Origin: Arenicola marina
Taxonomy: Eukaryota; Annelida; Polychaeta; Arenicolidae
Assembly (NCBI GenBank): GCA_964019135.1
Contig: OZ025248.1
Coordinates: 34,527,670 to 34,591,669 of the forward strand
DNA: 64,000 nucleotides
Direction of reading: 5' to 3'
Positions 25,251 through 52,644 of the stretch are shown piece after piece (position 1 is the first letter of the stretch; each line of letters starts with the position of its first letter). Under the pieces are notes generated by a model. It saw only the letters and a list, made by a program, of their open reading frames with translations. It was not told the DNA's origin and ran no database searches. Both the position numbers and the translations under genes were made by a program.

Positions 25251-25251
25251 A

Positions 25252-26529: not shown

Positions 26530-29500
26530 GTGTATGTGTAACACATGGTTGGTTATACGCGGGTGTGTATGTGTAACACATGGTTGGTTATACGTGTGTG
26601 CGTATGTGTAACACATGGTTGGTTATACGTGTGTGTGTATGTGTAACACATGGTTGGTTATACGTGTGTGTGTATGTGTAACACATGGTTGGTTATACGT
26701 GTGTTCGCATGTGTAACACATGGTTGGTTATACGTGTGTGTATGCGTAACACATGGTTGGTTATACGTGTGTGTGTATGCGTAACACATGGTTGGCTATA
26801 CGTGTGTGTGTATGTGTAACACATGGTTGGTTATACGTGTGTGTGTATGTGTAACACATGGTTGGTTATACGTGTGTGTGTATGTGTAACACATGGTTGG
26901 TTATACGTGTGTGTGTATGTGTAACACATGGTTGGTTATACGTGTGTGTGTATGTGTAACACATGGTTGGTTATACGTGTGTGTGTATGCGTAACACATG
27001 GTTGGTTATACGTGTGTGTGTATGCGTAACACATGGTTGGTTATACGTGTGTGTGTGTATGCGTAACACATGGTTGGTTATACGTGTGTGTGTATGTGTA
27101 ACACATGGTTGGTTATACGTGTGTGTGTATGTGTAACACATGGTTGGTTATACGTGTGTGTGTATGTGTAACACATGGTTGGTTATACGTGTGTGTGTAT
27201 GTGTAACACATGGTTGGTTATACGTGTGTGTGTATGTGTAACACATGGTTGGTTATACGTGTGTGTGTATGTGTAACACATGGGTGGTTATACGTGTGTG
27301 TGTATGTGTAACACATGGTTGGTTATACGTGTGTGTATGTGTAACACATGGTTGGTTATACGTGTGTGTGTATGTGTAACACATGGTTGGTTATACGTGT
27401 GTATGTATGTGTAACACATGGTTGGTTATACGTGTGTGTGTATGTGTAACACATGGTTGGTTATACGTGTGTGTGTATGTGTAACACATGGTTGGTTATA
27501 CGTGTGTGTGTATGTGTAACACATGGTTGGTTATACGTGTGTGTGTATGTGTAACACATGGTTGGTTATACGTGTGTGTGTATGTGTAACACATGGTTGG
27601 TTATACGTGTGTGTGTATGTGTAACACATGGTTGGTTATACGTGTGTGTGTATGTGTAACACATGGTTGGTTATACGTGTGTGTGTATGTGTAACACGTG
27701 GTTGGTTATACGTGTGTGTGTATGTGTAACACGTGGTTGGTTATACGTGTGTTCGCATGTGTAACACGTGGTTGGTTATACGTGTGTGTGTATGTGTAAC
27801 ACATGGTTGGTTATACGTGTGTGTGTGTGTGTAACACATGGTTGGTTATACGTGTGTGTGTATGTGTAACACATGGTTGGTTATACGTGTGTGTGTATGT
27901 GTAACACATGGTTGGTTATACGTGTGTGTGTATGTGTAACACATGGTTGGTTATACGTGTGTGTGTATGTGTAACACATGGTTGGTTATACGTGTGTGTG
28001 TATGTGTAACACATGGTTGGTTATACGTGTGTGTGTATGTGTAACACATGGTTGGTTATACGTGTGTGTGTATGTGTAACACATGGTTGGTTGTACGTGT
28101 GTGTGTATGTGTAACACATGGTTGATTATACGTGTGTGTGTATGTGTAACATATGGTTGGTTATACGTGTGTGTGTATGTGTAACACATGGTTGGTTATA
28201 CGTGTGTGTGTATGTGTAACACATGGTTGGTTATACGTGTGTGTGTATGTGTAACACATGGTTGGTTATACGTGTGTGTGTATGTGTAACACATGGTTGG
28301 TTATACGTGTGTGTGTATGTGTAACACATGGTTGGTTATACGTGTGTGTGTATGTGTAACACATGGTTGGTTATACGTGTGTGTGTATGTGTAACACATA
28401 GTTGGTTATACGTGTGTGTGTATGTGTAACACATGGTTGGTTATACGTGTGTGTGTATGTGTAACACATGGTTGGTTATACGTGTGTGTGTATGTGTAAC
28501 ACATGGTTGGTTATACGTGTGTGTGTATGTGTAACACATGGTTGGTTATACGTGTGTGTGTATGTGTAACACATGGTTGGTTATACGTGTGTGTGTATGT
28601 GTAACACATGGTTGGTTATACGTGTGTGTGTATGTGTAACACATGGTTGGTTATACGTGTGTGTGTATGTGTAACACATGGTTGGTTATACGTGTGTGTG
28701 TATGTGTAACACATGGTTGGTTATACGTGTGTGTGTATGTGTAACACATGGTTGGTTATACGTGTGTGTGTATGTGTAACACATGGTTGGTTATACGTGT
28801 GTGTGTGTATGTGTAACACATGGTTGGTTATACGTGTGTGTGTATGTGTAACACATGGTTGGTTATACGTGTGTGTGTATGTGTAACACATGGTTGGTTA
28901 TACGTGTGTGTGTATGTGTAACACATGGTTGGTTATACGTGTGTGTGTGTGTAACACATGGTTGGTTATACGTGTGTGTGTGTGTGCAACACATGGTTGG
29001 TTATACGTGTGTGTGTATGTGTAACACATGGTTGGTTATACGTGTGTGTGTATGTGTAACACATGGTTGGTTATACGTGTGTGTGTATGTGTAACACATG
29101 GTTGGTTATACGTGTGTGTGTATGTGTAACACATGGTTGGTTATGCGTGTGTGTGTATGTGTAACACATGGTTGGTTATACGTGTGTGTGTATGTGTAAC
29201 ACATGGTTGGTTATACGTGTGTGTGTATGTGTAACACATGGTTGGTTATACGTGTGTGTGTATGTGTAACACATGGTTGGTTATACGTGTGTGTGTATGT
29301 GTAACACATGGTTGGTTATACGTGTGTGTGTATGTGTAACACGTGGTTGGTTATACGTGTGTCTGTATGTGTAACACGTGGTTGGTTATACGTGTGTTCG
29401 CATGTGTAACACGTGGTTGGTTATACGTGTGTGTGTATGTGTAACACATGGTTGGTTATACGTGTGTGTGTGTGTGTAACACATGGTTGGTTATACGTGT

Positions 29501-30652
29501 GTGTGTATGTGTAACACATGGTTGGTTATACGTGTGTGTGTATGTGTAACACATGGTTGGTTATACGTGTGTGTGTATGTGTAACACATGGTTGGTTATA
29601 CGTGTGTGTGTATGTGTAACACATGGTTGGTTATACGTGTGTGTGTATGTGTAACACATGGTTGGTTATACGTGTGTGTGTATGTGTAACACATGGTTGG
29701 TTATACGTGTGTGTGTATGTGTAACACATGGTTGGTTGTACGTGTGTGTGTATGTGTAACACATGGTTGGTTATACGTGTGTGTGTATGTGTAACATATG
29801 GTTGGTTATACGTGTGTGTGTATGTGTAACACATGGTTGGTTATACGTGTGTGTGTATGTGTAACACATGGTTGGTTATACGTGTGTGTGTATGTGTAAC
29901 ACATGGTTGGTTATACGTGTGTGTGTATGTGTAACACATGGTTGGTTATACGTGTGTGTGTATGTGTAACACATGGTTGGTTATACGTGTGTGTGTATGT
30001 GTAACACATGGTTGGTTATACGTGTGTGTGTATGTGTAACACATGGTTGGTTATACGTGTGTGTGTATGTGTAACACATGGTTGGTTATACGTGTGTGTG
30101 TATGTGCAACACATGGTTGGTTATACGTGTGTGTGTATGTGTAACACATGGTTGGTTATACGTGTGTTCGCATGTGTAACACGTGGTTGGTTATACGTGT
30201 GTGTGTATGTGTAACACATGGTTGGTTATACGTGTGTGTGTATGTGTAACACATGGTTGGTTATACGTGTGTGTGTATGTGTAACACATGGTTGGTTATA
30301 CGTGTGTGTGTATGTGTAACACGTGGTTGGTTATACGTGTGTGTGTATGTGTAACACGTGGTTGGTTATACGTGTGTGTGTATGTGTAACACATGGTTGG
30401 TTATACGTGTGTGTGTATGTGTAACACATGGTTGGTTATACGTGTGTGTGTATGTGTAACACATGGTTGGTTATACGTGTGTGTGTATGTGTAACACATG
30501 GTTGGTTATACGTGTGTGTGTATGTGTAACACATGGTTGGTTATACGTGTGTGTGTATGTGTAACACATGGTTGGTTATACGTGTGTGTGTATGTGTAAC
30601 ACATGGTTGGTTATACGTGTGTGTGTATGTGTAACACATGGTTGGTTATGCG
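26530..30652. repeat. 35-bp GT-rich satellite, about 118 copies
   Basis: Unit of 35 bp: TGTAACACATGGTTGGTTAT then ACGTGTGTGTGTATG. Spacing is a constant 35 bp over most of the array (for example 27,901, 27,936, 27,971, 28,006). Rare variants (GTGTTCGCATG, AACACGTGG) occur in the same order near 27,690-27,790 and again near 29,335-29,430, about 1.65 kb apart, which shows large-block duplication within the array. Read in either strand it gives Cys/Val- or Thr/His-rich frames. The same satellite lies at 44,840-45,673 in the same orientation. Confidence 0.97.
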
Positions 30653-30879
30653 TGTTTGCATTCCTGCCATCTCGAGGACCTGATTTAGACTACACACCAA
30701 TGCTACGAGGACTTGGGCGAGTTTCGAGGACTTACACACGGGTCCTCGGAACCAAAATCGGTATTTCGCTGCAGACACCTTCCCTGGCTAGTTATTTTAC
30801 ATATTTCCAAAGTCCTCGGTTGTGTACTACATCGCTACTTTTCGAACTCTTCACTAAACCAGTGGCGCCGCCTGGATTT

Positions 30880-30965
30880 TCATGACGTAACAACTTGATA
30901 TGTGTGTGAGAACGTGTGTGTCACATGGACCAATCAGAAGGCGCCATTCAGCTGTACGCCATTTT
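30880..30965 (+). promoter_or_regulatory. Candidate promoter of the SET-recombinase gene
   Basis: Between the 35-bp satellite and a strong splice donor lie a CRE-like TGACGTAA (30,883-30,890), a CCAAT box (CCAATCA, 30,930-30,936), and a GCCATTTTG motif resembling the YY1 initiator element (30,958-30,966). No TATA box. Typical of a TATA-less housekeeping-style promoter. Inference from motifs and position. Confidence 0.4.
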
Positions 30966-31022
30966 GATGCGAAAAGGCAAAGCGCGCGCGGTCTGCATTG
31001 GACATTTTCAATATTTTATGTG
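30925..31022 (+). CDS. Candidate first coding exon of the SET-recombinase gene
   Basis: An open frame starts at ATG 30,925 (an internal in-frame ATG lies at 30,967) and runs 32 codons plus two bases to a consensus donor, TGTG|GTAAGT, at 31,022/31,023. The two leftover bases match the phase required by the SET exon at 33,800, which needs two bases from upstream. The encoded tail, GHFQYFM, lies where KMT5A has an F-Q-Y segment just before its Cys-x-Asp-Ala-Thr motif, but the rest does not look like the N-terminal half of a SET domain. The CCAAT box overlaps the upstream ATG, so if that box works the internal ATG would be used. Could also be purely untranslated. Confidence 0.3.
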
Positions 31023-31329
31023 GTAAGTGCACAAACTGTTATATCATTGGTTTCTAAAGTTATTCTGTAAGTACTGACGAAACTGTTGTGACGAATTTCT
31101 AACAGTTGAACCCAGCTGGCTCGATGTGAAGTGTTGTAGATCTAAATATTAGTAGATCTAGGTCTAACCCGTCAATGGCAATGGCACATGCGGCAGTGTG
31201 TCATATCAGACATAAGCTTATTTGTCACTGACACTGACGAATTGACACTGAACTCCGATTGTAACGATTGAAGCTGATACAAGTAGAACCTAAAACCCCT
31301 TAAGGTAGTGAATACCCATTCTTTTTCAT

Positions 31330-33490
31330 AGCACATATCATGAGGAGAAGAAAAGTTATTAATATCTAGGGGGATCGACCTTTTATATAGGGGCCCTACT
31401 TATTATCTAGGGGAATCGATTTATTATCTTGGGGGATCGACTTAAGATCTATAGGGCCCTACTTAATACCGATTTCTTATCTAGGGGGCCCTACGAATTA
31501 TGTAGGTTGATCGACTTATTGTCTAGGGGGACCGACTTACTATCTAGGGGAATCGATTAATCATCTTAGGCGCGGGCTATGGGTCCTGGCTATGATTCCG
31601 GGGACGGATTTGGCTCCAGGCTATGGCTCCGTGCGCAGGACTATGGCTCAGTGCGCTGAGCTATGGTTCCGGGGGCGGGCTTTGGCTCAGTGGGCTTGGG
31701 CTCCGGGCACGGGCTTCGGCTCCAGGCTATGGTTCCGGGGACGGGCTATGGCTCCGGGCGAGAGCTTTTGCTCTAGGTTATGGTTCCGGGGACGGGCTAT
31801 GGCTCCGGGCGCGGGCTTTTGCTCTAGGTTATGGTTCCAGGGACGGGCTATGGTTCCGGGCGCGGGCTTGTGCTCTAGGTTACGATTCCGGGGGCGGGCT
31901 ATGGCTCCGGGCGCGGGCTCTTGCTCCAGGCTATGGCTCCGGGGACGGGCTATGGCTCCGGGCGCGGGCTCTGGCTCCAGGCTATGGCTCCGGGGACGGG
32001 CTATGGCTCCGGGCGCGGGCTCTGGCTCCAGGCTATGGCTCCGGGGACGGGCTATGGCTCCGGGCGCGGGCTCTGGCTCCAGGCTATGGCTCCGGGGACG
32101 GGCTATGGCTCCGGGCGCGGGCTCTGGCTCCAGGCTATGGTTCCGGGGACGGGCTATGGCTCCGGGCGCGGGCTCTGGCTCCAGGCTATGGTTTCGGGGG
32201 CGGGCTATGGCTTCGGGCGCGGGCTCTGGCTCCAGGCTATGGCTCCGGGGACGGGCTATGGCTCCGGGCGCGGGCTCTGGCTCCAGGCTATGGCTCCGGG
32301 CGCGGGCTCTGGCTCCAGACTATGGCTCCGGGGGCGGGCTATGGCTCTGGGCGCGGGCTCTGGCTCCAGGCTATGGCTCCGGGGACGGGCTATGGCTCAA
32401 TGCACTGGATTATGGCTCCAGGCTATGGTTCCGGGGGCGGGCTATGGCTCCGGGCGCGCGCTCTGGCTCCAGGCTATGGCTCCGGGGACGGGCTATGGCT
32501 CCGGGCGCGGGCTCTGGCTCCAGGCTATGGCTCCGGGGACGGGCTATGGCTCCGGGCGCGGGCTCTGGCTCCAGGCTATGGTTTCGGGGGCGGGCTATGG
32601 CTCCGGGCGCGGGCTCTGGCTCCAGGCTATGGCTCCGGGGGCGGGCTATGGCTCTGGGCGCAGGCTCTGGCTCCAGGCTATGGCTCCGGGGACGGGCTAT
32701 GGCTCCGGGCGCGGGCTCTGGCTCCAGGCTATGGTTCCGGGGACGGGCTATGGCTCAATGCGCTGGATTATGGCTCCAGGCTATGGTTTCGGGGGCGGGC
32801 TATGGCTCCGGGCGCGGGCTCTGGCTCCAGGCTATGGCTCCGGGGACGGGCTATGGATCAATGCGCTGGATTATGGCTCCAGGCTATGGTTCCGGGGACG
32901 GGCTATGGCTCAATGCGCTGGATTATGGCTCCAGGCTATGGTTTCGGGGGCGGGCTATGGCTCAATGCGCTGGATTATGGCTCCAGGCTATGGCTCCGGG
33001 CGCGGGCTCTGGCTCCAGGCTATGGTTCCGGGGACGGGCTATGGCTCAATGCGCTGGATTATGGCTCCAGGCTATGGTTCCGGGGACGGGCTATGGCTCT
33101 GGGCGCGGGCTCTGGGCGCCGGGTTATGGTTCCGTGCGCAGGACTAAGGCTTAGTGCGCTGGGCTGGGTTATGGTTTCGAGCATGGGCTATGCCTCTAGG
33201 CTCCGGGCAATGGCTCCGCGAAGGCTATGGGTCGGGGATCCGGGCAATGGCTCCGCGTGCCGGGCTCCGTCTCTGGGCGCGGGCTATGTTGCGGTCGCAG
33301 GCCCTGGCTCCGGGCTACGGTTCTGAGAGCTGGTCTATGGCTCCGTGCGAGGCGTTTAAATCGGTAATAAGTAGGGACCTAGATTGTCCCCTTAGATAAT
33401 AAAGAGGGCGCCCTAGATAATAAGTTGATTCACCTAGATACTAAGTCGGTCCCCCCTAGATAATGAGTAAGGCCCCCTAGATAAGTCAGG
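31330..33490. mobile_element. Foldback-like structure: inverted arrays around a minisatellite
   Basis: Left arm (31,330-31,575) is an irregular array of a ~20-bp unit TTATTATCTAGGGGGATCGA. Right arm (33,360-33,490) carries the reverse complement of the same unit (CCCCTAGATAATAAG-type). Between them lies the 51-bp GC-rich minisatellite. Inverted arms made of tandem repeats resemble Foldback-type DNA elements. No transposase was seen and no flanking duplication was found. Lies in the putative first intron of the SET-recombinase gene. Confidence 0.55.
31570..33350. repeat. 51-bp GC-rich minisatellite, about 34 copies
   Basis: Unit of 51 bp: GGCTATGGCTCCGGGGACGG, GCTATGGCTCCGGGCGCGGG, CTCTGGCTCCA. 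Since 51 is divisible by three, frames of 408-567 codons stay open in all three plus-strand phases, with 17-residue repeats (for example GRAMAPGAGSGSRLWLR). A variant with CTCAATGCGCTGGATTATGG becomes frequent after 32,740. Three simultaneously open frames and an intronic position argue against coding. The copies at both edges are decayed. Confidence 0.93.
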
Positions 33491-33512
33491 GAGACTTTAA
33501 CAAAATATTTTC

Positions 33513-33704
33513 TCAAAAAGTGTTATACCTATGTCCCCAGGAAGCGTCCGTAGGTTTACCATTTGGCATTCTGCTATGCATTTGCTTGGCATCCAAAATG
33601 GGTTTAAACTTAGTAGTTGGCAGAGTAGTATCAAATTTGGAAAGGACCTGTTGATCGTTGATTGGATATAATGCTGACTGGATCAAGTAGGAGTAATTCA
33701 TCCT
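33513..33704 (-). CDS. Possible terminal exon or exon fragment, minus strand
   Basis: On the minus strand a 62-codon frame of ordinary, protein-like composition (starts MNYSYLIQSALYP, ends SWGHRYNTF, then TGA) is preceded by TTAAAACAG|G, a reasonable splice acceptor. The sequence is not repetitive and differs in character from the compositional frames around it. I do not recognise the family. It could be the last exon of a gene on the opposite strand, a fossil exon, or chance. Confidence 0.3.
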   Translation of the reverse strand, partial: RMNYSYLIQSALYPINDQQVLSKFDTTLPTTKFKPILDAKQMHSRMPNGKPTDASWGHRYNTF

Positions 33705-33799
33705 GTTTTAATATGCAACCGATCAACCGATTTATGCTATTGGGCACTTCATTAGATGCATAAACGCGTAAAAACTAAAATGAAGTTATTTTGTTCCAG

Positions 33800-33998
33800 C
33801 CAAGATGCAACCCATTCAACAGGACTTGGACGAATGGTAAATGACAGCCACAAGAACTTCAACTCCACCATGAAAGTAGTTGAAGTCAACGGCGAACCTC
33901 ACCTTTGCCTCTTTGCATTGAAACAGCGTACAATCAGGGCCGGAGAAGAGATTACATATAGCTACGGTGAACAAGACGACAATATGTACTGGAGACAG
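33800..33998 (+). CDS. Exon: C-terminal half of KMT5A-like SET domain
   Basis: Acceptor TTTTGTTCCAG|C and donor GACAG|GTAAGC bound 199 bp (needs two bases from upstream, ends in phase 0). The frame reads DATHSTGLGRMVNDSHKN, then GEPHLCLFALKQ and AGEEITYSYGEQDD. This matches the KMT5A (SETD8) pattern DAT-LGR-(I/L)NHS ... G-PHL ... I-AGEEL-YDYG. The family's NHS is NDS here, and YDYG is YSYG; the methyl-donor-contacting Asn and the catalytic-lid Tyr residues are retained. The post-SET segment is replaced by the linker. Whether methyltransferase activity survives depends on the missing upstream half. Confidence 0.85.
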
Positions 33999-36900
33999 GT
34001 AAGCTATCCCGAGATTGAAGTAGATAAAGATGGATTCAAAAATAGTTCATAGTTAGATTTTTGTAGTTTGGTCTAATTTTGTTAACAACTAGTTGGAGGC
34101 ATAATTCGTCCGCGCTTGGCCGGTACACAGTAGGAAAGGCGTTTTTAACCATTGCCATATTTGCAACAGTATGCCGGTGTCATTGCCACATGAGGGCGTT
34201 TACGATACTAGTACATGGACATTGCCAGGTCTTCATTAATAGTTTGGATTACACTGTCTTGTGTCCCTACAAACGTACATTAACGAAGTGTGTATTCATC
34301 CAGGGCAAGGCGAATCCGCATTCATTTCGTAAGTGATTGTACGATATAAGCGTTTGTGTAAGTGTAAAATATGCGGGAAAAGATCGCTCTGAAGATGTTC
34401 TTCTTCATGCGGTTTTATGAGTGAACTAAGATTTCGCTGTACTTAAGGAAAATGGGGCATTGTAATACATAGTTCGAACCTAAGATTCAAGATTCTGAAA
34501 AAAAACGGTAATTATAATTAAATAGATATTGACATGAGATGGAAGTACTATTTGAAGAGGAAGGTAGATACATGCCTTTAGCAGGCTGTCCAGTGATCCT
34601 ATTTTTCCTACTTTTTTGTCTCCATTCTATTTTTCATACTTTTTTTGTCTCCATTCTATTTTTCATACTTTTTTTGTCTCCATTCTATTTTGATAAACTT
34701 TTTCTTCAAAATACCTACATTTTCCTACTTTTTCGAACTCAGAGGTATTTTATTTTGGCGTCATGGTATATCTTTAAATGAGCACTGGTATCTGTCAAGT
34801 TCTAATAATGAAAATACAGGTACGGTTGAGCAGATATTTTATAAAAACGTAATTTCTCCATAATATAACTTGTTGTCATTTGTTTATCTGGAATAATGTT
34901 GCTGCGTATGTTATTTGAATCGTACTTTTGGCGTTTAGTTTTCTACTTTTGTCCTACTTTGTGCTTTTATCTTCCTAAATTTGTCCTACTTTTTCTATAT
35001 CTTCATTTCTACTTTTGTCCTATGTTTTCATGGGGTTGTTGTGCTGGACAGCCTGCTTTAGCTCATTGCTCTTTCACATGACAGCGACGGTTTTGGTTGT
35101 ATACACTTGACTAAGTTTTTTATTTTCTGTTCTTGTTGATATGTTTTACTTATAAGTTTAGCTACGACCCTGCATTACGTGTTTCGCTATGGGTTAATTT
35201 GAAATCTGACAGAAGTATGTTGTATGGGGCAAATGTTAATTACAAGTATCCATAAACCGAATATTGTGATGGGTGTCATATGACTGAAAAGGGTTAGGAG
35301 CAATGACAACTCGTCGGAACTTTATTTATAACGTTTTATAGTAAGCGTAAGAGGGTAGTACTTTTTTGCAGTCAATCCGCTCTTCTGTCTATTCCCAACG
35401 TGCGTACTTGTTATATTGTAGAACATGAGCAGCCCTCAAAAACCGAAACTCCTACTCGGAATCCAATGGTAAGTCCGTTTTTTTACCTCACCTTGGCATC
35501 TTTGAAAAATGTATCTTCTGTATGACGTATTATGCAACGTAACTGTGCCCTATTGGTAGTCTTCGAAACTACCGCAATGGGAATCATGTGTGTGATATAA
35601 GGAAACTGTGCCTATTGGTAGTCTTTGCAACTACCGCAATGGGAATCATGTGTGTGATATAAGGAAACTGTGCCCTATTGGTAGTCCTCGCAACCACCGC
35701 ACTAGGAAATGTGTGTGTGATACAAGGAAAGTGTGCCCTATTGGTAGTCCTCGCAACTATCGCAATAGGAATCGTGTGTGTGATACAAGGAGATTGTGTC
35801 CTATTGGTAGTCCTCGAAACTACCGCATTAGTAAAATCATGTGTGCGACATACGGGAACTGTGCCCTATTGGTAGTCCTCGCAGCTACTGCAATAGGATT
35901 CATGTGTGAGATACAAGGAAACTGTGCCCTATTGGTAGTCCTCGTAACTACCGCAATAGGAATCATGTGTGAGATACAAGGAAACTGTGCCCTATTGGTA
36001 GTCCTCGTAACTACCGCAATAGGAATCGTGTGTGTGATACAAGGAGATGGTGTCCTATTGGTAGTCCTCGAAACTACCACATGAGTAAAATCATGTGTGC
36101 GACATACGGGAACTGTGCCCTATTGGTAGTCCTCGCAGCTACTGCAATAGGAATTATGTGTGAAATATAAGGAGACTGCGCCACATTGATAGTCCTCGTA
36201 ACTACCGCAATAGGAATCATGTGTGTGATGTAAGGAAACTGTGCCCTATTGGTAGTCCTCGCAACTACCGCAATAGGAATCATGTGTGTGATATAAGGAA
36301 ACTGCGCCCTATTGGTAGTCCTCGCAACTACCGCAATAGGAATCGTGTGTGTGATATAAGGAAACTGGGCCCTTATGGTAGTCCTCGCAACTACCGCAAT
36401 AGGAATCGTTTGTGTGGTGAGGGAAACTGTGCCCTATTGGTAGTCCTCGCAACTACCGCAATAGGAATCATGTGTGTGATGTAAGGAAACTGTGCCCTAT
36501 TGGTAGTCCTCGTAACTACCGCAATATGAATCATGTGTGTGATATAAGGAAACTGTGCCCTGTTGGTAGTCCTCGTAACTACCGCAATAGGAATCGTGTG
36601 TGTGATATAAGGTAACTGCCCTATTGGTAGTCCTCGCAACTACCGCAATAGGAATCGTGTGTGTGATATAAGGAAACTGGGCCCTATTGGTAGTCCTCGC
36701 AACTACCGCAATAGGAATCATGTGTGTGATATAAGGAAACTGTGCCCTATTGGTAGTCCTCGTAACTACCGCAATATGAATCGTGTGTGTGATATAAGGA
36801 AACTGTCCTATTGGTAGTCCTCGCAACTACCGCAATGGGAATTGTTTGTGTGATAGAAGGAAACTGCGCCCTATTGGTAGTCCTCGCAACTACCGCAATA

Positions 36901-39900
36901 GGAATCATGTGTGTGATATAAGGAAACTGCGCCCTATTGGTAGTCCTCGCAACTACCGCAATAGGAATCGTGTGTGTGATATAAGGAAACTGGGCCCTAT
37001 TGGTAGTCCCCGCAACTACCGCAATAGGAATCGTTTGTGTGGTGAAGGAAACTGTGCCCTATTGGTAGTCCTCGTAACTACCGCCATAGGAATCGTTTGT
37101 GTGATAGAAGGAATCTGCGCCCTATTGGTAGTCCTCGCAACTACCGCAATAGGAATCGTATGTGTGATATAAGGAAACTGCGCCCTATTGGTAGTCCTCG
37201 CAACTACCGCAATAGGAATCGTGTGTGTGATATAAGGAAACTGGGCCCTATTGGTAGTCCTCGCAACTACCGCAATAGGAATCGTTTGTGTGGTGAGGGA
37301 AACTGGGCCCTATTGGTAGTCCTCACAACTACCGCAATAAGAATCGTGTGTGTGATATACGGAAACTGCGCTCTATTGGTAGTCCTCGCAACTACCGCAA
37401 TAGGAATCATGTGTGCAATATAAGGAGACTGTGCCTTATGGGTAGTCCTCGCAACTACCGCAATAGAAATGATGTGTGCAATATAAGGAGACTGTGCCTT
37501 ATGGGTAGTCCTCGCAACTACCGCAATAGGAATCATGTGTGTGATATAAGGTAACTGCCCTATTGGTAGTCCTCGCAACTACCGCAATAGTAAATTCATG
37601 AGTGCGACATAAGGAAACTGTGCCCTATTGGTAGTCCTCGCAACAACCACAATAGTAAAATCATGTGTGCGTGATATACGGGAACTGTGCCATATTGGTA
37701 GCCCTCGCAGCTACTGCAATAGGAATCATGTGTGTAATGTAGGGAATGGAATGTTGGTGTTTTAGGCCACTTTTGTGCACATACAGGCTAAATTGGACCA
37801 AGGAACCTCCCGAGACGATGAAGGATGAAGGAATGAAACATGCCCCAGATTAAGTGCCTGAGTCCGGATTCGAACCCAGGACCTATTGATCTGCGGTCTA
37901 GTGCGCTAACCACTACACCAGGGAGGCCCCCTGTAATGTAGGGAAACTGTGCCCTATTGGTAGTCCTCACAACTACCGCAATAGGAATCATGTGTGTGGT
38001 AAAGGAAACTGTGCCCTATTGGTAGTCCTCGCAACAACCACAATATTAAAATCATGTGTGCGTGATATACGGGAACTGTGCCCTATTGGTAGTCCTCGCA
38101 ACTACCACAATATTAAAATCATGTGTGCGTGATATACGGGAACTGTGCCCTATTGGTATTCCTCGCAACTACCACAATATTAAAATCATGTGTGCGTGAT
38201 ATACGGGAACTGTGCCCTATTGGTAGTCCTCGCAACTACCACAATATTAAAATCATGTGTGCGTGATATACGGGAATTGTGCCATATTGGTAGTCCTCGC
38301 AACTAGCGCAATAGTAAAATCATGTGTGCGTGATATAAGGTAACTGCCCTATTGGTAGTCCTCGCAACTACCGCAATAGGAATCATGTGTGTGATAATCG
38401 GAAACTGTGCCCTATTGGTAGTCCTCGTAACTACCGCAATAGTAAAATCATGTGTGCGATATACGGGAACTGTGCCATATTGGTAGTCCTCGCAACTACT
38501 GCAATAGGAATCATGTGTGCGATATAAGGAAACCATGCCTTAGTGGTAGTCCTCGCAGCTATTGCAATAGGAATCGTGTGTGTAAAATGTAGGGAAACTG
38601 TGCCCTATTGGTAGTCCCCGCAACTACCGCAATAGGAATCGTGTGTGTAAAATGTAGGGAAACTGTGCCCTATTGGTAGTCCTCGCAACTACCGCAATAG
38701 GAATCGCGTGTGTGAAATGTAGGGAAACTGTACCCTATTGGTAGTCCTCGCAACTACCGCAATAGGAGTCATGTATGTGATAAAAGGGAACTGTGCCCTA
38801 TGGGTAGTCCTCGCAACTACTGCAATAGGAATCATGTGTGCGATATAAGGAAACCATGCCTTAGTGGTAGTCCTCACAGCTATTGCAATAGGAATCGTGT
38901 GTGTAAAATGTAGGGAAACTGTGCCCTATTGGTAGTCCTCACAACTACCGCAATAGGAATCGCGTGTGTGAAATGTAGGGAAACTGTACCCTATTGGTAG
39001 TCCTCGCAACTACCGCAATAGGAGTCATGTGTGTGATAAAAGGGAACTGTGCCCTACTGGTAGTCCTCGCAACTACTGCAATAGGAATCATGTGTGTGGT
39101 AAAGGAAACTGTGCCCTATTGGTAGTCCTCGCAGCTACTGCAATCGGAATCGTGTGTGTAAAATGTAGGGAAACTGTGCCCTATTGGTTTTCCTCGCCAC
39201 TACCGCAGTAGGAGTCATGTGTGTGATATAAGGAAACTGCGCCCTTTTGGTAGTCCTCGCAACTACCGCAATAGGAATCATGTGTGCGATATAAGGAAAC
39301 CATGCCCTAGTGGTAGTCCTCGCAGCTACTGCAATGTGAATATTGTGTGTGACATGGGAACACTATGTTCTATTGGTGGTCCTCGCAACTACCGCAATAG
39401 GAATAATGTGTATGATATAAGGCAACTGTGCCCTATTGGTAGTCCTTGCTAGTACCGCACTCGGAATCTGTGTTTTACTTAAGGCCACTGTGTTCTATTG
39501 GTAGTCCTCGCGTAATTCTTCATTAACTTTTCAATCTATTATTTAATCATTTGTCTCTTTGCAGCCATCTAGTGACAACGCATCGAGCGAAGATGGTATG
39601 ATGTCTGACTCCTCCGAAGACGAATACAATCCGAAAACATCCTCCTCGGGTTCTGACTCTGAGTCCGGTGTACCGCCATCAGTGGATTCTGACGACTCGC
39701 TCCTGTCGTTTATTATACCTGTTCCGGACACTACCCCCAAAAGAAAATCTGACAGGGCTGCGTCGGTCAGCGAATGTGCACCAAGTGCTAACGCTCATGT
39801 GATTACATCTCAAACCAGGGATGAATTACCGGCTGGCAGCAGTCGGATATCAGAGGCGGTGACAGTGACACACGGTGACGTATCTGTGACTTCATCAGGT

Positions 39901-42384
39901 AGTCAGCTTGTAGTGGAAACTACCAATAACACGAACGCGCGCTTGTGGGATAAAAGACACTTTTGCCTCTACTGTATGAATCAATTTCCGAAATTACCAA
40001 GACATCTGGAGCAAATGCATTCTTCCGAAATGGAAGTTGCAGCGACTTTAGCGCTGCCGAAAAAAAGCAAAGAAAGAAAACTCAGGTGGGATGATTTGAG
40101 GAACCGAGGAAATTATGCCCACAACACGGAAGTAATCCGGAGAGGTCACGGTAGTATCATTCCATACAAACGTCCCAGCAGCAAAACGGATGCCAGTCTG
40201 TACGTGCCATGCAGCGGATGCTTAGCGTTCTTTCCAAAAGACGACTTGTGGATGCATATGGCGTTTTGCAACAAGAGGAAAGGTATCACGTCGCAAGGAA
40301 GAGCAGCTCCGCATCAATATCAACGCGCAAGTGCCGCGTTGCTTCCCGTCTGTGAAGAGGCCAGCAGTCAGTTTAAAGCCAAGATATTAAACACCCTTGC
40401 GCATGACCATATATCACTTGCTATTCGACAAGATCCACTAATCGTGAAGTTCGGATCCAAATTATTCGCCAAGAACGGTCATCAGGTTCATCAACACCAA
40501 TATATTAAACAGAAGACACGAGAGCTTGGTCGCGTTCTGATCAAAGCCAGGGAACTTGATAGCACGATATCAACTCTGGAGGACTGCATTGAACCCCAAA
40601 AATTTGATTTGGTCGTTAAGGCTGTAAAGGCCGTCAGTGGCTATCAGGAAGATTCGGGTACATACCAAACTCCATCGTTGGCACTGAAACTGGGTCACTC
40701 GCTCAAAAAGTGTGCACTGTACACCAAGGCAGACGGTTTACGACTCAGTGACGAAAACAAAAGGCAGCGCGCTGCTTCTTTCCACGAACTGGTTGAAGTA
40801 GAGTGGTGCACGCAGGTGTCCAGTCAGGCGCTGCAGACCTTGCACGAAAAGTCGTACAACAAGCCGAAAAGGATACCTATGGCGCAAGATATCAAGCGTC
40901 TGAACGCGTACTTGTGCGACAGAGCAACACACCTAGTTTCAAATTTGGAAGAAAACGCCAATGAGAGGACATGGCGAGAATTGTCAGAGGTAACACTGAC
41001 TCAGTTAACTCTGTTCAATAGGCGGAGAGGGGGTGAAATGGAAAGGATGACGACAGCTGGTTACAGTCAAGGCATCACACAGGATACACAAATCCAAGAA
41101 GAAGTCGCTTCTTCATTGTCTCCCTTTGAACGTGAACTACTGAAAATGATGACGCGAGTGGAGATGAGAGGCAAGCGGGGACGCAAGGTTGCCGTATTGT
41201 TGACCCAAAGTCATCAACGACAAATAAATATGTTGAATCAGACAAGAGCTGCGGGCAACATCAGCGCTGACAACCCGTACCAATTCCCAAGGCCGGGAGA
41301 TTTGAAAACGCCGCTCCGCAGTTGTGACATCTTGCGAAAATTCGCAAATGACTGCGGATGTAAGAAGCCTGAACTGTTAACCTCCACTTCATTGCGAAAA
41401 CACATTGCGGTCGTGGCGCAATTACTTAACCTGAAGGACAACGAACTCGACATTGTGGCCGGCTTTCTTGGGCACGACATCCGCATACATAGGGAATACT
41501 ACAGGCTGCCCGAAGATACGATTGAATTGGTTAAGGTCAGCAAACTCCTTATTCATCTAGAGAAAGGTGATCTACAGGCATTCAAGGGGAAGTCGCTGGA
41601 CGAAATCCACGTTGATGATAACGGTTAGTATGCGAATGAGCTTCCATTGCAATTGACCTGTCCAATTAACACGACTTTACTTCAGATACTTAGAGTCTTA
41701 AGGTTAATGACTTTGCGAATCCAACAATCGTTAACAGTGCATTTCCCCAAGTCGCTGTCAAGGGTGGTATTTTGTATCTATCCATATTTCCCTGTTTAAT
41801 AGAGGACGTCTCGGAGGAGGAGGCTGAGGAAGAGGCCGAGGAGGAAGAAGAGAAGGAAGAGGACATGGAAGCACGGAAAAAAACATCACGTGAGCGGAAT
41901 GACAAAAATTAAACTACTTTGTTTTGTCGAATAGCAAACTTGATCTGTACTGCTATGCCGTATAGTTTTTCTGAAGCGGACTACAGTGAATGGATTGGCG
42001 TTTAGGCCACGCCTTTACTTTATATGGGCCACCCGTCCAAGAAACTGCCTTGCATAGTGAGAAATAATAATTCGGGCCAGGTGCATCGGCAGGCCATGTC
42101 AATGAGATGGAGATAAGAAATGTCTTGATACAGTGTGTGTGTATTTTCCTCAAGCCGCCGGACCGGTAAAGGCCAGTGCGCGAGGGGTGGTTCGCAGGCA
42201 TTGGACCAAGGAAGAGAAAGACGCTGTCCAGGAGCACCTGGGCGCATTCCTGAGGATAGGGAAATGTCCTGGAAAGAGGGACTGCGAGCAAGCAGGAAAA
42301 GATGCGCGCTTAAAAGGGCGCAATTGGACTAATATTAAACATTGTGTTAAGAACATACTCGATTCCAAGAAGAGGCGAAAGTAG
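33800..42384 (+). CDS. SET / zinc-finger / tyrosine-recombinase / SANT-like composite gene
   Basis: Five exons with GT/AG borders and fully compatible phases: 33,800-33,998, 35,433-35,468, 39,565-41,623, 41,803-41,889 and 42,155-42,384. Together they encode about 870 residues. Order of parts: C-terminal half of a KMT5A-like SET domain, a short linker, a Ser/Asp/Glu-rich region, a C2H2 and a C2HC finger, a helical region, a tyrosine-recombinase catalytic domain, an acidic stretch, and a C-terminal Trp-containing SANT/Myb-like domain ending in a basic tail. An AATAAA signal follows. The recombinase part resembles Crypton-derived (DUF3504-type) domains. I recall SET-plus-recombinase-like proteins annotated as KMT5A-like in fish and invertebrates, but cannot check this here. 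It may be a domesticated host gene or a mobile element carrying a chromatin domain. The N-terminal half of the SET domain was not found, so the model is probably incomplete at its 5' end. Confidence 0.8.
34604..34700. repeat. 29-bp T-rich tandem repeat, 3 copies, intronic
   Basis: TCCATTCTATTTTTCATACT repeats at 34,621, 34,650 and 34,679. Related CTACTTTTGTCCTA motifs recur at 34,940-35,020. Lies in the intron after the SET exon. Confidence 0.8.
35433..35468 (+). CDS. Micro-exon, 12 codons, of the composite gene
   Basis: TGAGCAG|CCC acceptor and CCAATG|GTAAGT donor give a 36-bp exon, phase 0 to phase 0, encoding PSKTETPTRNPM. Two other AG dinucleotides lie just upstream: one (exon from 35,430) also keeps the frame and adds a Gln, while the one giving an exon from 35,422 would shift it. 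Called because it is the only small exon with a strong donor that keeps the frame between the SET and recombinase exons. Direct SET-to-large-exon splicing is also phase-compatible, so it may be alternative. Confidence 0.5.
35520..39510. repeat. 63-bp hairpin-forming minisatellite, about 63 copies, intronic
   Basis: Unit of 63 bp: AAGGAAACTGTGCCCTATTG, GTAGTCCTCGCAACTACCGC, AATAGGAATCATGTGTGTGATAT (split here for length). Each unit is an imperfect palindrome: CCTATTG-GTAGT pairs with ACTAC-(CG)-CAATAGG around the loop CCTCGCA, i.e. a 12-bp stem with a two-base bulge. It gives 60-158 codon frames on both strands (NYRNRNHVCDIRKL or IPIAVVARTTNRAQF repeats), which stop where units carry indels. 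The array fills the intron just before the recombinase exon and is interrupted by one SINE. Confidence 0.93.
37747..37931 (-). mobile_element. tRNA-derived SINE, family B, complete, with TSD
   Basis: Read on the minus strand it begins with a tRNA-like head: A box TGGTGTAGTGGTTAGCGC and B box GGTTCGAATCC, correctly spaced, followed by a body and the tail CCTAAAACACCAACATTCC. It is flanked by a perfect 14-bp duplication, TGTAATGTAGGGAA, at 37,733-37,746 and 37,932-37,945. Inserted inside a 63-bp satellite unit, so it is younger than that part of the array. Confidence 0.95.
39565..41623 (+). CDS. Exon: acidic region, two zinc fingers, tyrosine recombinase
   Basis: Acceptor CTCTTTGCAG|CC, donor AACG|GTTAGT, 686 codons plus one base. 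The first ~75 residues are Ser/Asp/Glu-rich. Finger 1 (39,961-40,020) is C-x2-C-x9-H-x4-H; finger 2 (40,211-40,270) is C-x2-C-x11-H-x3-C. The C-terminal ~270 residues form a tyrosine-recombinase fold: Arg in NRRRGGE (41,020-41,028), a Lys/Arg-rich beta-hairpin RGKRGRK (41,170s), Arg in SLRKHIA (41,395-41,397), His in LGHD (41,473-41,475) and a Tyr pair in HREYYRLP (41,497-41,502). Only the box II histidine (H-x-x-R) is replaced, by Ser/Thr, a common state in Crypton-type domains. The frame has no interruption over 2 kb, which argues for recent activity or selection. Confidence 0.93.
41803..41889 (+). CDS. Exon: acidic Glu-rich segment
   Basis: TTTAATAG|AGGACG acceptor and CATCAC|GTGAGC donor give 87 bp, phase 1 to phase 1, matching both neighbours. 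Encodes DVSEEEAEEEAEEEEEKEED and a short basic end. Acidic linker between the recombinase domain and the C-terminal domain. Confidence 0.75.
42155..42384 (+). CDS. Exon: C-terminal SANT/Myb-like domain
   Basis: TTTTCCTCAAG|CC acceptor, phase 1 entry, stop TAG at 42,382-42,384. Encodes RRHWTKEEKDAVQEHLGAF, then a helix-turn region with CPGKRDCEQ, then LKGRNWTNIKHCVKN and the basic end SKKRRK. Two tryptophans with W-T-x-E-E-x-x-A-V and W-x-x-I-K-x-x-V-K-N spacing are typical of SANT/Myb-type helices. Likely DNA or histone-tail contact and nuclear localisation. The upstream in-frame ATG at 42,133 lies in the intron and is not the start. Confidence 0.85.
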
Positions 42385-42840
42385 GAATGTATTTCGAACT
42401 ATCTAGGCCTATTTTGCAAGTTGAATTTGCGAGATGAAGTCTGAAATGTATTAGCGTATGTTCTTCCCATTGCAGTAGTAACTCGAAACGGAAATCGTTT
42501 GTAATGTTATCATTGTCATAGTTGACATTGTTCAGCTTATGTCGCAGTGTTCCATGGAAAACCTCAGCCGCACCGCTTCACGTGGAGGGACGGCCAATGC
42601 ACAAATATTGACCTTCAAATACTTAGCGGTAAAGCTGTACTTGATCAATATTCAGTGAAAGCCTGCAGTATTTCATAATGACACTGCAGTATGGATTAAG
42701 GTTTAATCATTAGTTAAGGTGATTGTGTATTCAATTCTGACCAGCTAAGCATCTATTGCTGCAGTGGAGCAATTATGTCTTCTATGTGAGTTCCGCTGAA
42801 CGCTCTATGGGGCCGATGCGGTGACGACAGTTTGTTGATC

Positions 42841-42846
42841 AATAAA
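42841..42846 (+). terminator. Polyadenylation signal of the composite gene
   Basis: Canonical AATAAA 457 bp after the stop codon, giving a plausible 3' UTR of about 480 bases. No closer canonical hexamer noticed. Confidence 0.6.
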
Positions 42847-43090: not shown

Positions 43091-43954
43091 CAATAGACCG
43101 TTCTAGGGAAAATTCTGGCAGGCGCGCGTGTTTCGGGTAGCTCTACCTCGTTCTGTGCTGCATAACATGCAAAAGGCGAGTACTGACTTATAGCTGCTTA
43201 ATTTTCAACAGTTTATCATAGGTTAGCAGGGTGTTTTCTAAAAAAAAAAAACACTTAATACAAATAATTATCTTGACTATCAAATAATATAATTTTAAGA
43301 ACGAGATGGAGGCATAAAAGCCGAGAAAACAGCTGATATAAATGCCAACTGGCGAATGGAAAGACCGTCACAACGCTGTGCGTAGCAGGAAAATGGCCAT
43401 ATTTCCGTATTTCTGATGTTCTTCAATGCGGAAATAATTATCGTTCTGGCGTCTACTTTGTCTAGAAATATTATAAAGCTAATTGAAGAATATACATCGT
43501 ACAGAATACATAACTTGTGTACCCGATGTGTGCCGATTATAACTTGTTATAAAGTGATGATATGGACTGTCGCTGTCACTGTCGTGTCAATGCAAATCTG
43601 AGTGCACTGTAGTGGCTCGAGCCTTGTTGCGTAGCAAACAGGAATGTTTAACGGAAAGCCTAACAGATACAACTTTTAAACTGTTCTTAATCTAGTGAAA
43701 TACAAACTGTGCTTCCATTATATAATCTAATACGTACAGGAAAGTTTATAGAGACATCTTGTTTGTTTGTTCTTTGAGTAACAATCCCATAGAACCAATC
43801 TATCCGTGGCAAAAGAAACGTTGAAGCCGGGCACTTGAACCAACTCCATAGGCATGCATGGTAAACGCATGCGATAATCTGTTTTCTAACCCGTAACACA
43901 CAGTGTCTATTTTTGACGATAGATGTCGCCTGGGGTATCTGGAACGGTCTATTG
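43091..43954 (+). mobile_element. TIR element (MITE-like), forward copy
   Basis: 864 bp bounded by perfect 13-bp inverted ends, CAATAGACCGTTC, at 43,091-43,103 and 43,942-43,954. Homologous in reverse to 25,252-25,896. A ~215-bp segment at about 43,615-43,840 is private to this copy. No transposase. Target-site duplication not clear, so family (hAT, PIF or other) is not assigned. Confidence 0.88.
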
Positions 43955-44839
43955 TTTATGTTCCGCGTTCTTCGTGGGTTCCGTCCATACCTGCATGGGG
44001 ATCAAGAGCTTTAAATTCGTTGATCGATTTCAGTCCTCCATTTAAGACGACTCATTATTATTGCAGTGATGTTTTCCTTGAGGGTATTATTGTTAATCTT
44101 ATTGTTGCAAGAAGTAGATCCTCAATCCAGATTCGCTACAGGGAGGTATTTGATGCAAGGGCTTCCGTTGACCTGTATGTATACTTGTTTTTCATCAAGG
44201 GCGACCAGCATACTATACAATTTACTTCTGATGCGCTTATAGTTGCATGTTGAGCTTTGCCAAGGTCGTACGGGATGGATAGGGGAACTAAAAGGGTAAA
44301 TTATTTGCCGCTGCCAATCCGTTCAAACTACCCGTAATGCTATTGATGGAACCCTGTTGGTCAAAAAGGGTGGCATAGCAGTGGTGGGTATCACGACAGC
44401 CTTGTCGACTTCTCACGTGGGACTACCACTTGTACCAACGGCATATGTTGGTACAGGCCGGATATATTTACCTTACTTAGCGTTGGGGTAACCCCGGCTC
44501 CCCTCTCTCCTTAATCAGTCACATTCTCCCGATGTGACCCTTTAGGGAACAAGATTGAAAGAAGTATAGGAAGAATAGGAAGCCGGACGAAGTCCTCGTT
44601 AGAATAGGAAGCTGAACTAAGTCCTCGGAACCAGTCGCCTGGTCCTCGATGGTCATGCAACTTGTCAATGGGTGCGGTGTCGCAAGTTACAACTATTCCA
44701 CAGTTATAGTACTGTGTATGAAACATATAGTGCAAGGACTATGATTTAAACATCGTGGGAGCGTGTTAGCTATAGTGGAGACTGTGGTCCTCGAAAATGC
44801 AGTATGAAGTTTAGGTCCTCGTCCACCTGGTTATCCAGG
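43955..44839. other. Anonymous sequence
   Basis: A 116-codon frame (43,903-44,253) begins inside the TIR element and has no family signature. The heptamer GTCCTCG is over-represented at 44,590-44,815, as it also is at 30,670-30,820 on the other side of the gene. Function unknown. Confidence 0.4.
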
Positions 44840-45673
44840 TATGTGTGTGTGTGTATGCGTAACACATGGTTGGTTATACGTGTGTGTGTATGTGTAACAC
44901 ATGGTTGGTTATACGTGTGTGTGTATGTGTAACACATGGTTGGTTATACGTGTGTATGTATGTGTAACACGTGGTTGGTTATACGTGTGTGTGTATGTGT
45001 AACACATGGTTGGTTATACGTGTGTGTGTATGTGTAACACATGGTTGGTTATACGTGTGTGTGTATGTGTAACACATGGTTGGTTATACGTGTGTGTGTA
45101 TGTGTAACACATGGTTGGTTATACGTGTGTGTGTATGTGTAACACATGGTTGGTTATACGTGTGTGTGTATGTGTTACACATGGTTGGTTATACGTGTGT
45201 GTGTATGTCCAACCCATGGTTGGTTATGCGTGTGTGTATGCGTAACACATGGTTGGTTATATGTGTGTATATGTGTAACACATGGTTGGTTATACGTGTG
45301 TGTGTATGTGTAACACATGGTTGGTTATACGTGTGTATGTATGTGTAACACATGGTTGGTTATACGTGTGTGTGTATGTGTAACACATAGTTGGTTATAC
45401 GTGTGTGTGTATGTGTAACACATGGTTGGTTATACGTGTGTGTGTATGTGTAACACATGGTTGGTTATACGTGTGTGTGTGTATGTGTAACACATGGTTG
45501 CTTATACGTGTGTGTATGTGTTACACATGGTTGGTTATACGTGTATGTGTATGTGTAACACATGGTTGGTTATACGTGTGTGTATGTGTAACACATGGTT
45601 GGTTATACGTGTGTGTGTATGTGTAACACATGGTTGGTTATACGTGTGTGTGTATGTGTAACACATGGTTGGA
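44840..45673. repeat. 35-bp GT-rich satellite, second array, about 24 copies
   Basis: Same unit and orientation as 26,530-30,652, with more diverged copies (45,180-45,360, 45,490-45,560). Ends abruptly at 45,673 against the SINE at 45,690. Confidence 0.97.
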
Positions 45674-45925: not shown

Positions 45926-46410
45926 TCAAGGACAATAACGGTATACGCAGCTAAATTATTGAATGTTCGTTAGAAACAATTTATGTTTTTAGAATCGCAA
46001 GAGCCTCCAAACAATTCCGATTTTTAGTTCCAGCGAACGGAGAACCAAAATTTATAATGGTGCATTTGTAATGGGCGTTCATGGAATATTACATGTTAAA
46101 TGGCAGGCCTGATGTACTGTGTATGCCTGAATATTACAAAATTAAATTAAATTGGTAAATTATTGAAGAGTATTTTTTCCGTGAATTTATAATGGTTTAT
46201 GGATCATCTTGGTGTATGGCACGTTGCCAATGACGTATGGAGAGCCATCTGGTATGTGCATCACCGCCGTAACACGTAGGCACCTGGGGCCGAATTCATA
46301 ACCCCATCGTAAGTTACGCGCGAAAGGTGCATATTCATCCTCACCAGCTAGTTGTGGTTGTGCCTAGATTAATACAATCCTTTTCAATACAATTTTAGCA
46401 CTTTCTTAAT

Positions 46411-46490
46411 TCAGGAAATCTAAATAATTATATTACGTATTTTGAAGCCCTCAGGAAATCTAAATAATTATATTACGTATTTTGAAGCCC
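46411..46490. repeat. 40-bp perfect tandem duplication
   Basis: TCAGGAAATCTAAATAATTA continues to GAAGCCC and repeats once, at 46,411 and 46,451. Very young. Lies inside the dispersed repeat shared with 24,285 and 54,705. Confidence 0.9.
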
Positions 46491-46734
46491 ATAATCGCTC
46501 GACAAATCTTCCACTTAGCGTTAAGTCTAGTGGCGTAGTCTAAATGGCGATTATTAATAGGGCCCCTGGGGCTTATACCAAGCATAATTTCAATATCATT
46601 GATTTCTGCTTTGACCCTTCCCCATTATCGCTAGATGCTTTTAGCGATGTTTTTCAAGTGAATTACTTAACCGAGGCTCTCTCGCTAGGGTTTGCAATAG
46701 GGGTCTCGAAGGGGTAATTGCCAAAAAGCGACAC

Positions 46735-46930
46735 AGGCATATTTGAAAAAAAAACGACATTCGACATTGAAACCCAAAGTTCTGACGCTGAGGCTCTGAA
46801 AAAGCGACATCGACACAGAGTGGGATTTTATGAAAAAAAATACACCAAGCTACACTAAGCCAAACAGCGACACAGAACGTCGTGTAGAATCGACATTCGA
46901 CACTGAGAATTTTGAAAAAAATGACACAGG
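46735..46930. repeat. Degenerate A-rich repeat
   Basis: Irregular recurrences of GAAAAAA-CGACA-type blocks (CGACATTCGACA at 46,755 and 46,890). Private to copy A. Nature unclear. Confidence 0.4.
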
Positions 46931-47866: not shown

Positions 47867-47986
47867 ATGTACGTAACCCTAGTCAGTGGGCGCGTTCTTT
47901 GGGCCAGCACCGGTACGCCGCGCGGTATGTACGTAACCCTAGTCAGTGGGCGCGTTCTTTGTGCCAGGACCGGTACGCCGCGCGGT
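47867..47986. repeat. 60-bp tandem duplication, two copies
   Basis: ATGTACGTAACCCTAGTCAG and 40 further bases occur twice, two differences apart. The paralogous position in copy B (about 55,940-56,005) has one copy. Confidence 0.92.
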
Positions 47987-48093
47987 GTACTCAGGTTCTT
48001 CTGAGATGTTCACACCGGTCATATCCGGTTAATTTAGGGGCAATGGAACCAGCCTAGATAGTCACTTTTCAATCAGCCGCCATCTACTGCCGA

Positions 48094-48330: not shown

Positions 48331-48460
48331 AACATAACAAAAAATAACAAAATTTGTATGATATTCAGTAACTATCATACGTGACACAACGAGCGTCGCG
48401 TGACTTTAAATCGGTGACGTCATCTTAGTGTCATAGTTGTTTTTAATTCGCGGAGCAACC

Positions 48461-52640: not shown

Positions 52641-52644
52641 GCGG

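What the first reader, a model, noticed from the sequence alone, without database searches (positions are those of the whole stretch)
30925..42846. Composite gene joining a KMT5A-like SET domain to a tyrosine recombinase and a SANT-like domain
Seen: five exons with consensus splice sites, matching phases at every junction, no stop over about 870 codons. Parts: SET C-terminal half, two zinc fingers, recombinase with Arg, Lys, Arg, His and Tyr positions present, acidic exon, Trp-rich SANT-like end. Known: tyrosine recombinases of the Crypton group gave rise to several host proteins (ZMYM, QRICH1, KCTD1 relatives), and SET-DNA-transposase fusion is known (SETMAR). Inference: this is either a domesticated regulator that writes or reads H4K20-type marks at bound DNA, or a mobile element that carries a chromatin module. 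A recombinase tied to a histone methyltransferase-like domain is unusual and the best candidate system in the window.
Basis: partly seen in the sequence, partly recalled or inferred. Interest (0 to 1): 0.85.

Follow-up and report, generated by a model that had tools for sequence, protein, structure and literature searches.

The report
KMT5A-type SET plus tyrosine recombinase gene
This animal gene appears to weld part of a histone-marking enzyme (KMT5A) to a DNA-cutting tyrosine recombinase, and the same pairing recurs at other places in the genome, so it looks like a real gene family and not a chance neighbourhood; here the histone-marking half lacks a piece and is probably inactive.

Summary
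The window encodes a KMT5A-type SET C-terminal half (33800-33998; first 14 PDB hits all KMT5A), then an open exon with two zinc-finger-like motifs and a tyrosine recombinase (39565-41623), whose AlphaFold model best matches XerH. Catalytic R, K, R, H, Y are present here and at every aligned locus covering them (9/9, 8/8, 8/8, 7/7, 7/7, window included). A six-exon splice model gives 902 aa.

The pairing is not chance: 10 of 32 recombinase loci have a SET match within 25 kb upstream on the same strand, none in another arrangement, 0.03 expected. Corrections: it is not DUF3504/Crypton by profile. The SET N-half is absent from the window but seen at the nine other paired loci, so this SET is probably dead. 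The SANT-like end is weakly supported.

Most likely a resident, recombinase-derived gene family with captured KMT5A exons; a low-copy mobile element remains possible. No held paper pairs 'KMT5A' or 'SETD8' with 'tyrosine recombinase'. Transcript linkage is untested.

The parts
30925..31022 (+). putative exon 1 (ATG, 98 nt, donor GTAAGT)
   Evidence: splice consensus and phase only; weakest part of the model
33800..33998 (+). SET domain C-terminal half, KMT5A type, ending in a splice donor
   Evidence: PF00856 31.2 bits; first 14 PDB hits all KMT5A/SETD8, best E 1.6e-7; exon begins where the host KMT5A last exon begins
35433..35468 (+). putative 12-codon exon 3 (phase 0, may be skipped)
   Evidence: splice consensus only
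39565..41623 (+). large exon: acidic/serine-rich leader, two zinc-finger-like motifs, tyrosine recombinase
   Evidence: 693-codon open frame; paralogues; alignment A1; AlphaFold2 and Foldseek
39964..40020 (+). first zinc-finger-like motif C-x2-C ... H-x4-H (CLYC ... HLEQMH)
   Evidence: positions; both Cys kept in 9 of 9 loci that cover the motif in full, both His in 10 of 10
40210..40269 (+). second zinc-finger-like motif C-x2-C ... H-x3-C (CSGC ... HMAFC)
   Evidence: positions; all four ligands kept in 10 of 10 aligned loci
41026..41502 (+). recombinase active site: R494 (41026), K543 (41173), R617 (41395), H643 (41473), Y652 (41500), numbered in the 693-aa frame
   Evidence: positions; kept in 9/9, 8/8, 8/8, 7/7, 7/7 aligned loci, window included
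41803..41889 (+). acidic exon
   Evidence: splice consensus, phase 1 on both sides
42155..42384 (+). last exon, Trp-rich Myb/SANT/homeodomain-like three-helix end, stop codon
   Evidence: one other genomic match at C20:27667810, 37% identity; three helices, pLDDT 71.9; weak fold matches
42841..42846 (+). AATAAA poly(A) signal
   Evidence: sequence
31699..33134 (.). 51-bp minisatellite, about half of intron 1, where relatives carry the SET N-half exon
   Evidence: TRF; no SET N-half found in the window
35541..39511 (.). 63-bp minisatellite taking up nearly all of intron 3
   Evidence: TRF, 62 copies

Best explanation
It is one member of an animal gene family of at least 32 recombinase loci. Its core is a zinc-finger plus tyrosine-recombinase protein that acquired the SET exons of KMT5A, introns included. 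Shown by computation: the recurrent SET-upstream, same-strand arrangement, a predicted recombinase fold, a complete recombinase active site, and purifying selection among relatives. Inferred: SET and recombinase are spliced into one protein; the zinc fingers, recombinase core and Myb-like end bind DNA; complete members place a lysine methyl mark where they are bound, and may cut and rejoin DNA by the Tyr-Arg-Lys-His chemistry. The window copy is a single-copy, resident gene whose SET lacks the SAM-binding half, so it most likely works as a DNA-bound chromatin protein (with or without recombinase activity) and not as a methyltransferase.
For: 10 of 32 recombinase loci have SET within 25 kb upstream on the same strand, 0 in the three other arrangements. 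SET exon begins as the host KMT5A last exon does, but ends in a splice donor where KMT5A has its stop, in 7 of 7 tested incl. the window. SET N-half upstream in 9 of 9 other paired loci (7, 2). Predicted recombinase fold and active site. Synonymous sites saturated while proteins stay 34-70% identical in five pairs. The window copy has no close copy by protein search: next best 33%. Duplicate copies elsewhere begin or end at differing points inside the gene.
Against: No transcript data. Catalytic residues are kept at every aligned locus, which is more typical of live elements than of domesticated recombinases (PMC3212892: DUF3504 genes lost the Tyr and the second Arg). Some relatives, none of them with SET nearby, are dispersed and about 90-98% identical. 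Many relatives carry stop codons, and one paired relative (L046, C244:11677) has a stop inside its SET exon. Purifying selection among paralogues does not tell a host gene from an active transposon lineage. 22 of 32 loci, the best paralogue C14 among them, have no SET match within 25 kb.
Confidence: 0.5

Rival explanations
1. A low-copy mobile element: a tyrosine-recombinase DNA transposon that carries a captured KMT5A methyltransferase, perhaps to shape chromatin at itself or its target; the window holds an old, SET-damaged copy.
For: Active-site residues kept across relatives that are 18-48% identical to the window; dispersed copies at about 90-98% identity on C5, C3, C226 and on C439, C7; 18 of 32 loci on contigs numbered above 20; broken copies with stops.
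Against: The close copies compared share no constant ends: the C3 copy begins inside the gene relative to C5, C226 also begins inside it, and C7 stops inside the frame of C439. These close copies belong to loci without SET. Many introns; no close relative of the window copy. The inverted repeats flanking the window gene are a dispersed repeat found genome-wide.
Confidence: 0.35
2. Two neighbouring genes: a truncated KMT5A-like gene and a separate recombinase-derived gene that happen to lie together and were duplicated together.
For: No RNA evidence joins them; 2.3 to 18.7 kb separates the two at the ten loci; exon 3 of the model is unsupported.
Against: The SET exon has a splice donor and no stop at its end in 7 of 7 tested, so it should splice onward; in the window the recombinase exon is the next recognisable coding exon on that strand and its phase fits.
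Confidence: 0.1
3. A decaying relic: once a family member, now without function.
For: SET N-half missing; introns swollen by minisatellites.
Against: 693 codons open although synonymous sites are saturated against the nearest relatives; all five active-site residues intact; the SET half is 67% identical to L044 with fourfold sites alike at only 4 of 16.
Confidence: 0.05

Closest known systems
KMT5A (SETD8, PR-Set7), H4K20 monomethyltransferase
   Same: SET C-half sequence (E 1.6e-7 to KMT5A chains) and exon start; relatives also keep an N-half, tested for L047: KMT5A best at E 5e-10
   Different: Window lacks the N-half; NHS reads NDS; the exon continues by a splice donor instead of the KMT5A stop
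Cryptons and DUF3504 genes (ZMYM2/3/4, QRICH1, KCTD1, WOC)
   Same: Tyrosine recombinase in animal genes joined to other domains
   Different: No DUF3504 profile match though 58 exist elsewhere in this genome; catalytic residues kept; zinc fingers, SET and a C-terminal domain, whereas animal Cryptons have no C-terminal domain (PMC3212892, section 8 read)
SETMAR (Metnase)
   Same: Methyltransferase-type SET joined to a DNA-transposition enzyme
   Different: SETMAR joins SET to a mariner transposase in anthropoid primates (abstracts in the listing; DDE type recalled); here another SET, another enzyme class, and ten paired loci
Xer/XerH and topoisomerase IB (tyrosine recombinase superfamily)
   Same: Predicted fold and order of active-site residues (motif order recalled)
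   Different: About 11-13% identity; eukaryotic multi-domain context; Ser or Thr at the HxxR His position

Membership tests
KMT5A SET methyltransferase | KMT5A is the nearest SET by sequence | tested here: met
   first 14 PDB sequences are KMT5A/SETD8, 30.7-34.3 bits; the next sequence 26.5
KMT5A SET methyltransferase | complete SET with SAM-binding N-half | tested here: not met
   not found in the 64-kb window by pattern, HMM, tblastn or phmmer; present in 9 of 9 other paired loci
KMT5A SET methyltransferase | NHS motif | tested here: not met
   NDS in the window; ND in 6 of 7 fetched relatives, NH in L042
Tyrosine recombinase superfamily | fold of core-binding plus catalytic domain | tested here: met
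   predicted model; first eight PDB matches are XerH (6) and topoisomerase IB (2), prob 1.00; E only 2e-3 to 6e-2
Tyrosine recombinase superfamily | catalytic R, K, R, H, Y in order | tested here: met
Tyrosine recombinase superfamily | profile match in sequence | tested here: inconclusive
   window exon: no recombinase profile; paralogue exon (L011) PF00589 24.6 bits, below the 27.1 cut-off
Crypton / DUF3504 | DUF3504 (PF12012) profile match | tested here: not met
   none at E<=1; 58 genome matches, 0 of 32 loci within 5 kb of one
Crypton / DUF3504 | mobility: multiple copies with constant ends | tested here: inconclusive
   close copies begin or end inside the gene at differing points; no full-length pair was read to both ends
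DIRS/Ngaro recombinase retroelements | reverse transcriptase beside the recombinase | tested here: inconclusive
   no RT profile in 13 window ORFs scanned of 103 listed at 90 aa or more
DIRS/Ngaro recombinase retroelements | split direct or inverted repeats | not tested
   general self-comparison only
SETMAR | mariner transposase | tested here: not met
   no transposase profile in the large exon; recombinase fold instead

The most novel reading that the evidence does not exclude
A distinct, non-Crypton class of eukaryotic tyrosine-recombinase genes or elements that encode their own KMT5A-type histone methyltransferase in the same protein, so that DNA cutting and local chromatin marking are coupled in one molecule; members with a full SET and a full active site (such as the C399 locus) would be live enzymes of both kinds.
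Probability: 0.25. Interest if true: 0.85.

Novelty: new variant of a known kind. Interest (0 to 1): 0.62.

Why it matters
SETMAR is the familiar case of a SET domain joined to a DNA-transposition enzyme. Here a different SET (KMT5A) and a different enzyme class (tyrosine recombinase) are paired, at ten loci of one genome, and the recombinase active site is intact wherever it was aligned, which domesticated DUF3504 genes have lost. If transcripts confirm the join, it gives a testable system for how recombinase-derived genes capture chromatin enzymes, and for whether eukaryotic tyrosine recombinases mark the chromatin they act on.

Tried and rejected
Crypton/DUF3504 origin by profile: rejected. 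Element ends at the inverted repeats 25251-25894 and 43093-43955: rejected, they are a dispersed repeat of about 860 bp. SET N-half hidden in the window: searched four ways, not found. SANT-like end as a family feature: only one other genomic match, at a place that is not among the 32 recombinase loci. Close relatives in IMG/VR viral contigs: none with the window protein. Sea-urchin test by bindin: no match, but its controls were silent too, so it says little; the animal was not identified. PHROGs: nothing of note. Literature: 'KMT5A' with 'tyrosine recombinase' 0 papers, 'SETD8' with 'tyrosine recombinase' 0, 'SETD8' with 'Crypton' 0; 'Crypton' with 'SET domain' 9 papers, titles and abstract starts seen only, none announcing such a join. 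The rows shown by wider searches (capped lists) named nothing that describes it. Opened: PMC3212892 (abstract, sections 5 and 8, passages), PMC4157794 (passages), PMC2200798 (passages). Subscription papers and preprints are not in that library, and annotated animal proteomes could not be searched, so 'unreported' is only as wide as these searches.
Full report
What is there. The window lies at C1:34527670-34591669 of an 867-Mb genome in 762 contigs. Exon 33800-33998 encodes a SET C-terminal half (PF00856 positions 50-105, 31.2 bits). In the PDB its first 14 hits are all KMT5A/SETD8 (30.7-34.3 bits); the next sequence scores 26.5. A 693-codon open frame at 39547-41628 reaches no Pfam cut-off and no PDB sequence; its weak Pfam row Znf_XAF1_N (E 0.17, residues 221-241) falls on the second zinc-finger-like motif. 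A spliced model of six exons (30925-31022, 33800-33998, 35433-35468, 39565-41623, 41803-41889, 42155-42384) has GT/AG borders, compatible phases, 902 codons and a poly(A) signal at 42841. Exons 1 and 3 rest on splice consensus alone.

The recombinase. The window and 19 exon pieces of relatives from the same genome were aligned (20 rows, identities to the window 18-48%). The rows were picked among open pieces: stop-bearing loci such as L014, L015, L016, L017 and near-duplicates (L022, L023, L028) were left out, and two rows (L011, L037) are the same place. The pattern FNxRRGGE, GK, LRK, LGH and Tyr nine residues after that His fits the order of catalytic residues in tyrosine recombinases (motif knowledge recalled). 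Counted by locus, window included, R, K, R, H and Y are kept in 9 of 9, 8 of 8, 8 of 8, 7 of 7 and 7 of 7; the HxxR His position is Thr in 5 and Ser in 3 of 8 (one search counted rows, with that place twice). The eight zinc-finger ligands are kept wherever both ends of the motif are covered (9 or 10 loci). One relative's exon hits PF00589 at 24.6 bits (cut-off 27.1) and XerD at E 6.3e-5. AlphaFold2 with that alignment gave pLDDT 85.5 and pTM 0.55. Foldseek in the PDB ranks XerH six times, then topoisomerase IB twice (E 2e-3 to 6e-2, prob 1.00; no match reached E 0.001; the whole-chain superposition is loose, rmsd 9-14 A); Flp comes lower with prob 0.08-0.20. In the viral library the best named matches are integrases, two at E below 0.001.

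A recurrent pair. Recombinase matches merge into 32 loci; SET places number 58. Ten of the 32 loci have a SET place within 25 kb upstream on the same strand (2.3 to 18.7 kb away); none has one downstream or on the other strand; even spreading predicts 0.027. The SET list was partly gathered by similarity to the window exon, SET genes cluster, and C399 and C450 are near-identical copies, so the ten are not all independent and the expectation is rough; but the one-sided orientation is its own control. As a second control, of 58 DUF3504 matches only one (C371) lies within 25 kb of any SET place. later showed at least four more distant recombinase places that are not in the 32. Several KMT5A-like SET exons (on C613, C12, C336, C260) have no recombinase match within 25 kb.

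How the join looks. The SET exon begins where the host KMT5A last exon begins (L002, C11:22326202), and in the window and six relatives it ends in WRK, WRQ or WKK followed by a GT donor, where KMT5A runs to a stop. L042 gave no such donor; its frame ends earlier. L046 has a stop inside its SET exon. So the exon came from a KMT5A gene with its introns and is not terminal any more. The SET N-half lies upstream in 7 of 7 fetched relatives (four by pattern, which then made the HMM that found the other three, L044 in two weak pieces), and by genome search also at C450 and C11: 9 of 9 other paired loci. In the window it was not found. About half of intron 1, where it would be expected, is a 51-bp minisatellite. 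The window reads NDS for NHS; ND is seen in 6 of 7 fetched relatives, NH in L042.

Selection. Between the window and its nearest relative L010 (548 codons, 34% amino-acid identity) fourfold sites agree at 17 of 66, as expected at saturation (0.26 against 0.25). L018 against L019: 335 codons, 70% identity, fourfold 31 of 92 (0.34 against 0.25). The SET exon against L044: 66 codons, 67% identity, fourfold 4 of 16. The one recent pair, L019 against the stop-bearing L027, has dS 0.06 and dN 0.02 (all). So the proteins were held while silent sites were randomised. This fits a host gene and equally an active transposon lineage.

Mobile or resident. For mobility: kept active site, dispersed copies at about 90-98% identity (C5, C3, C226; C439 and C7), stop-bearing copies, 18 of 32 loci on contigs numbered above 20. 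Against: in the close pairs compared, one copy begins or ends inside the gene at varying points, and these loci are without SET; the three near-identical loci C399, C450, C562 are alike over the whole stretch held, so show no ends; the window copy has no close copy; its flanking inverted repeats are a dispersed repeat. I lean to a resident gene family, 0.5 against 0.35.

Other parts. The last exon folds as three helices (pLDDT 71.9, two-sequence alignment) with weak matches to homeodomain and Myb structures (best E 0.38); its only other genomic match is at C20:27667810, with no recombinase frame evident in that 3.2-kb locus.

Against known kinds. Animal Cryptons encode a recombinase without a C-terminal domain, and DUF3504 genes derived from them lost the catalytic Tyr and second Arg (PMC3212892, sections 5 and 8 and passages read). 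This family keeps the residues and is not hit by DUF3504, while 58 other places in the genome are. It works like a tyrosine recombinase by anatomy; it is not filed as a Crypton. SETMAR is the nearest parallel by idea, with other parts (listing only).

Noticed in passing
26523-30655 and 44845-45672: The same 35-bp minisatellite (118 and 24 copies, about 95% alike) lies on both sides of the gene.
   Followed up: partly
3305-5843, 8465-12949, 62481-63844: Long minisatellites: 27 bp x 94, 55 bp x 82, 68 bp x 20; the long open frames at 3296-5854 are repeat artefacts.
   Followed up: no
25251-25894 and 43093-43955: Inverted pair of a dispersed repeat of about 860 bp; 42 matches reported, 40 of 2050 first-look candidates scored.
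   Followed up: yes
46283-52811 and 54698-63942: Collinear duplicated blocks, 76-91% identical, 7.8 to 11 kb apart, reaching into a rhodopsin-type GPCR exon at 51690-52160 (7tm_1 34.8 bits).
   Followed up: partly
C613, C12:23579063, C336:58581, C260:259249: KMT5A-like SET exons with no recombinase match within 25 kb; whether a recombinase partner exists is open.
   Followed up: no
C244 (1.24 Mb), C399, C450, C225, C613 and other contigs numbered above 20: 18 of 32 recombinase loci lie on contigs numbered above 20, three with SET on C244 alone; haplotig, heterochromatin or an unplaced chromosome could explain it.
   Followed up: no
genome-wide, e.g. C5:25339286, C1:4553682: 58 DUF3504 (Crypton-type) matches; the best 13 score 116-129 bits, 10 of them without stops, which may point to a fairly recent Crypton expansion.
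   Followed up: no
C371:13244 and C371:33870: A SET N-half match lies within 25 kb of a DUF3504 match, the only such case of 58.
   Followed up: no
20334-20533: Run of 200 N.
   Followed up: no
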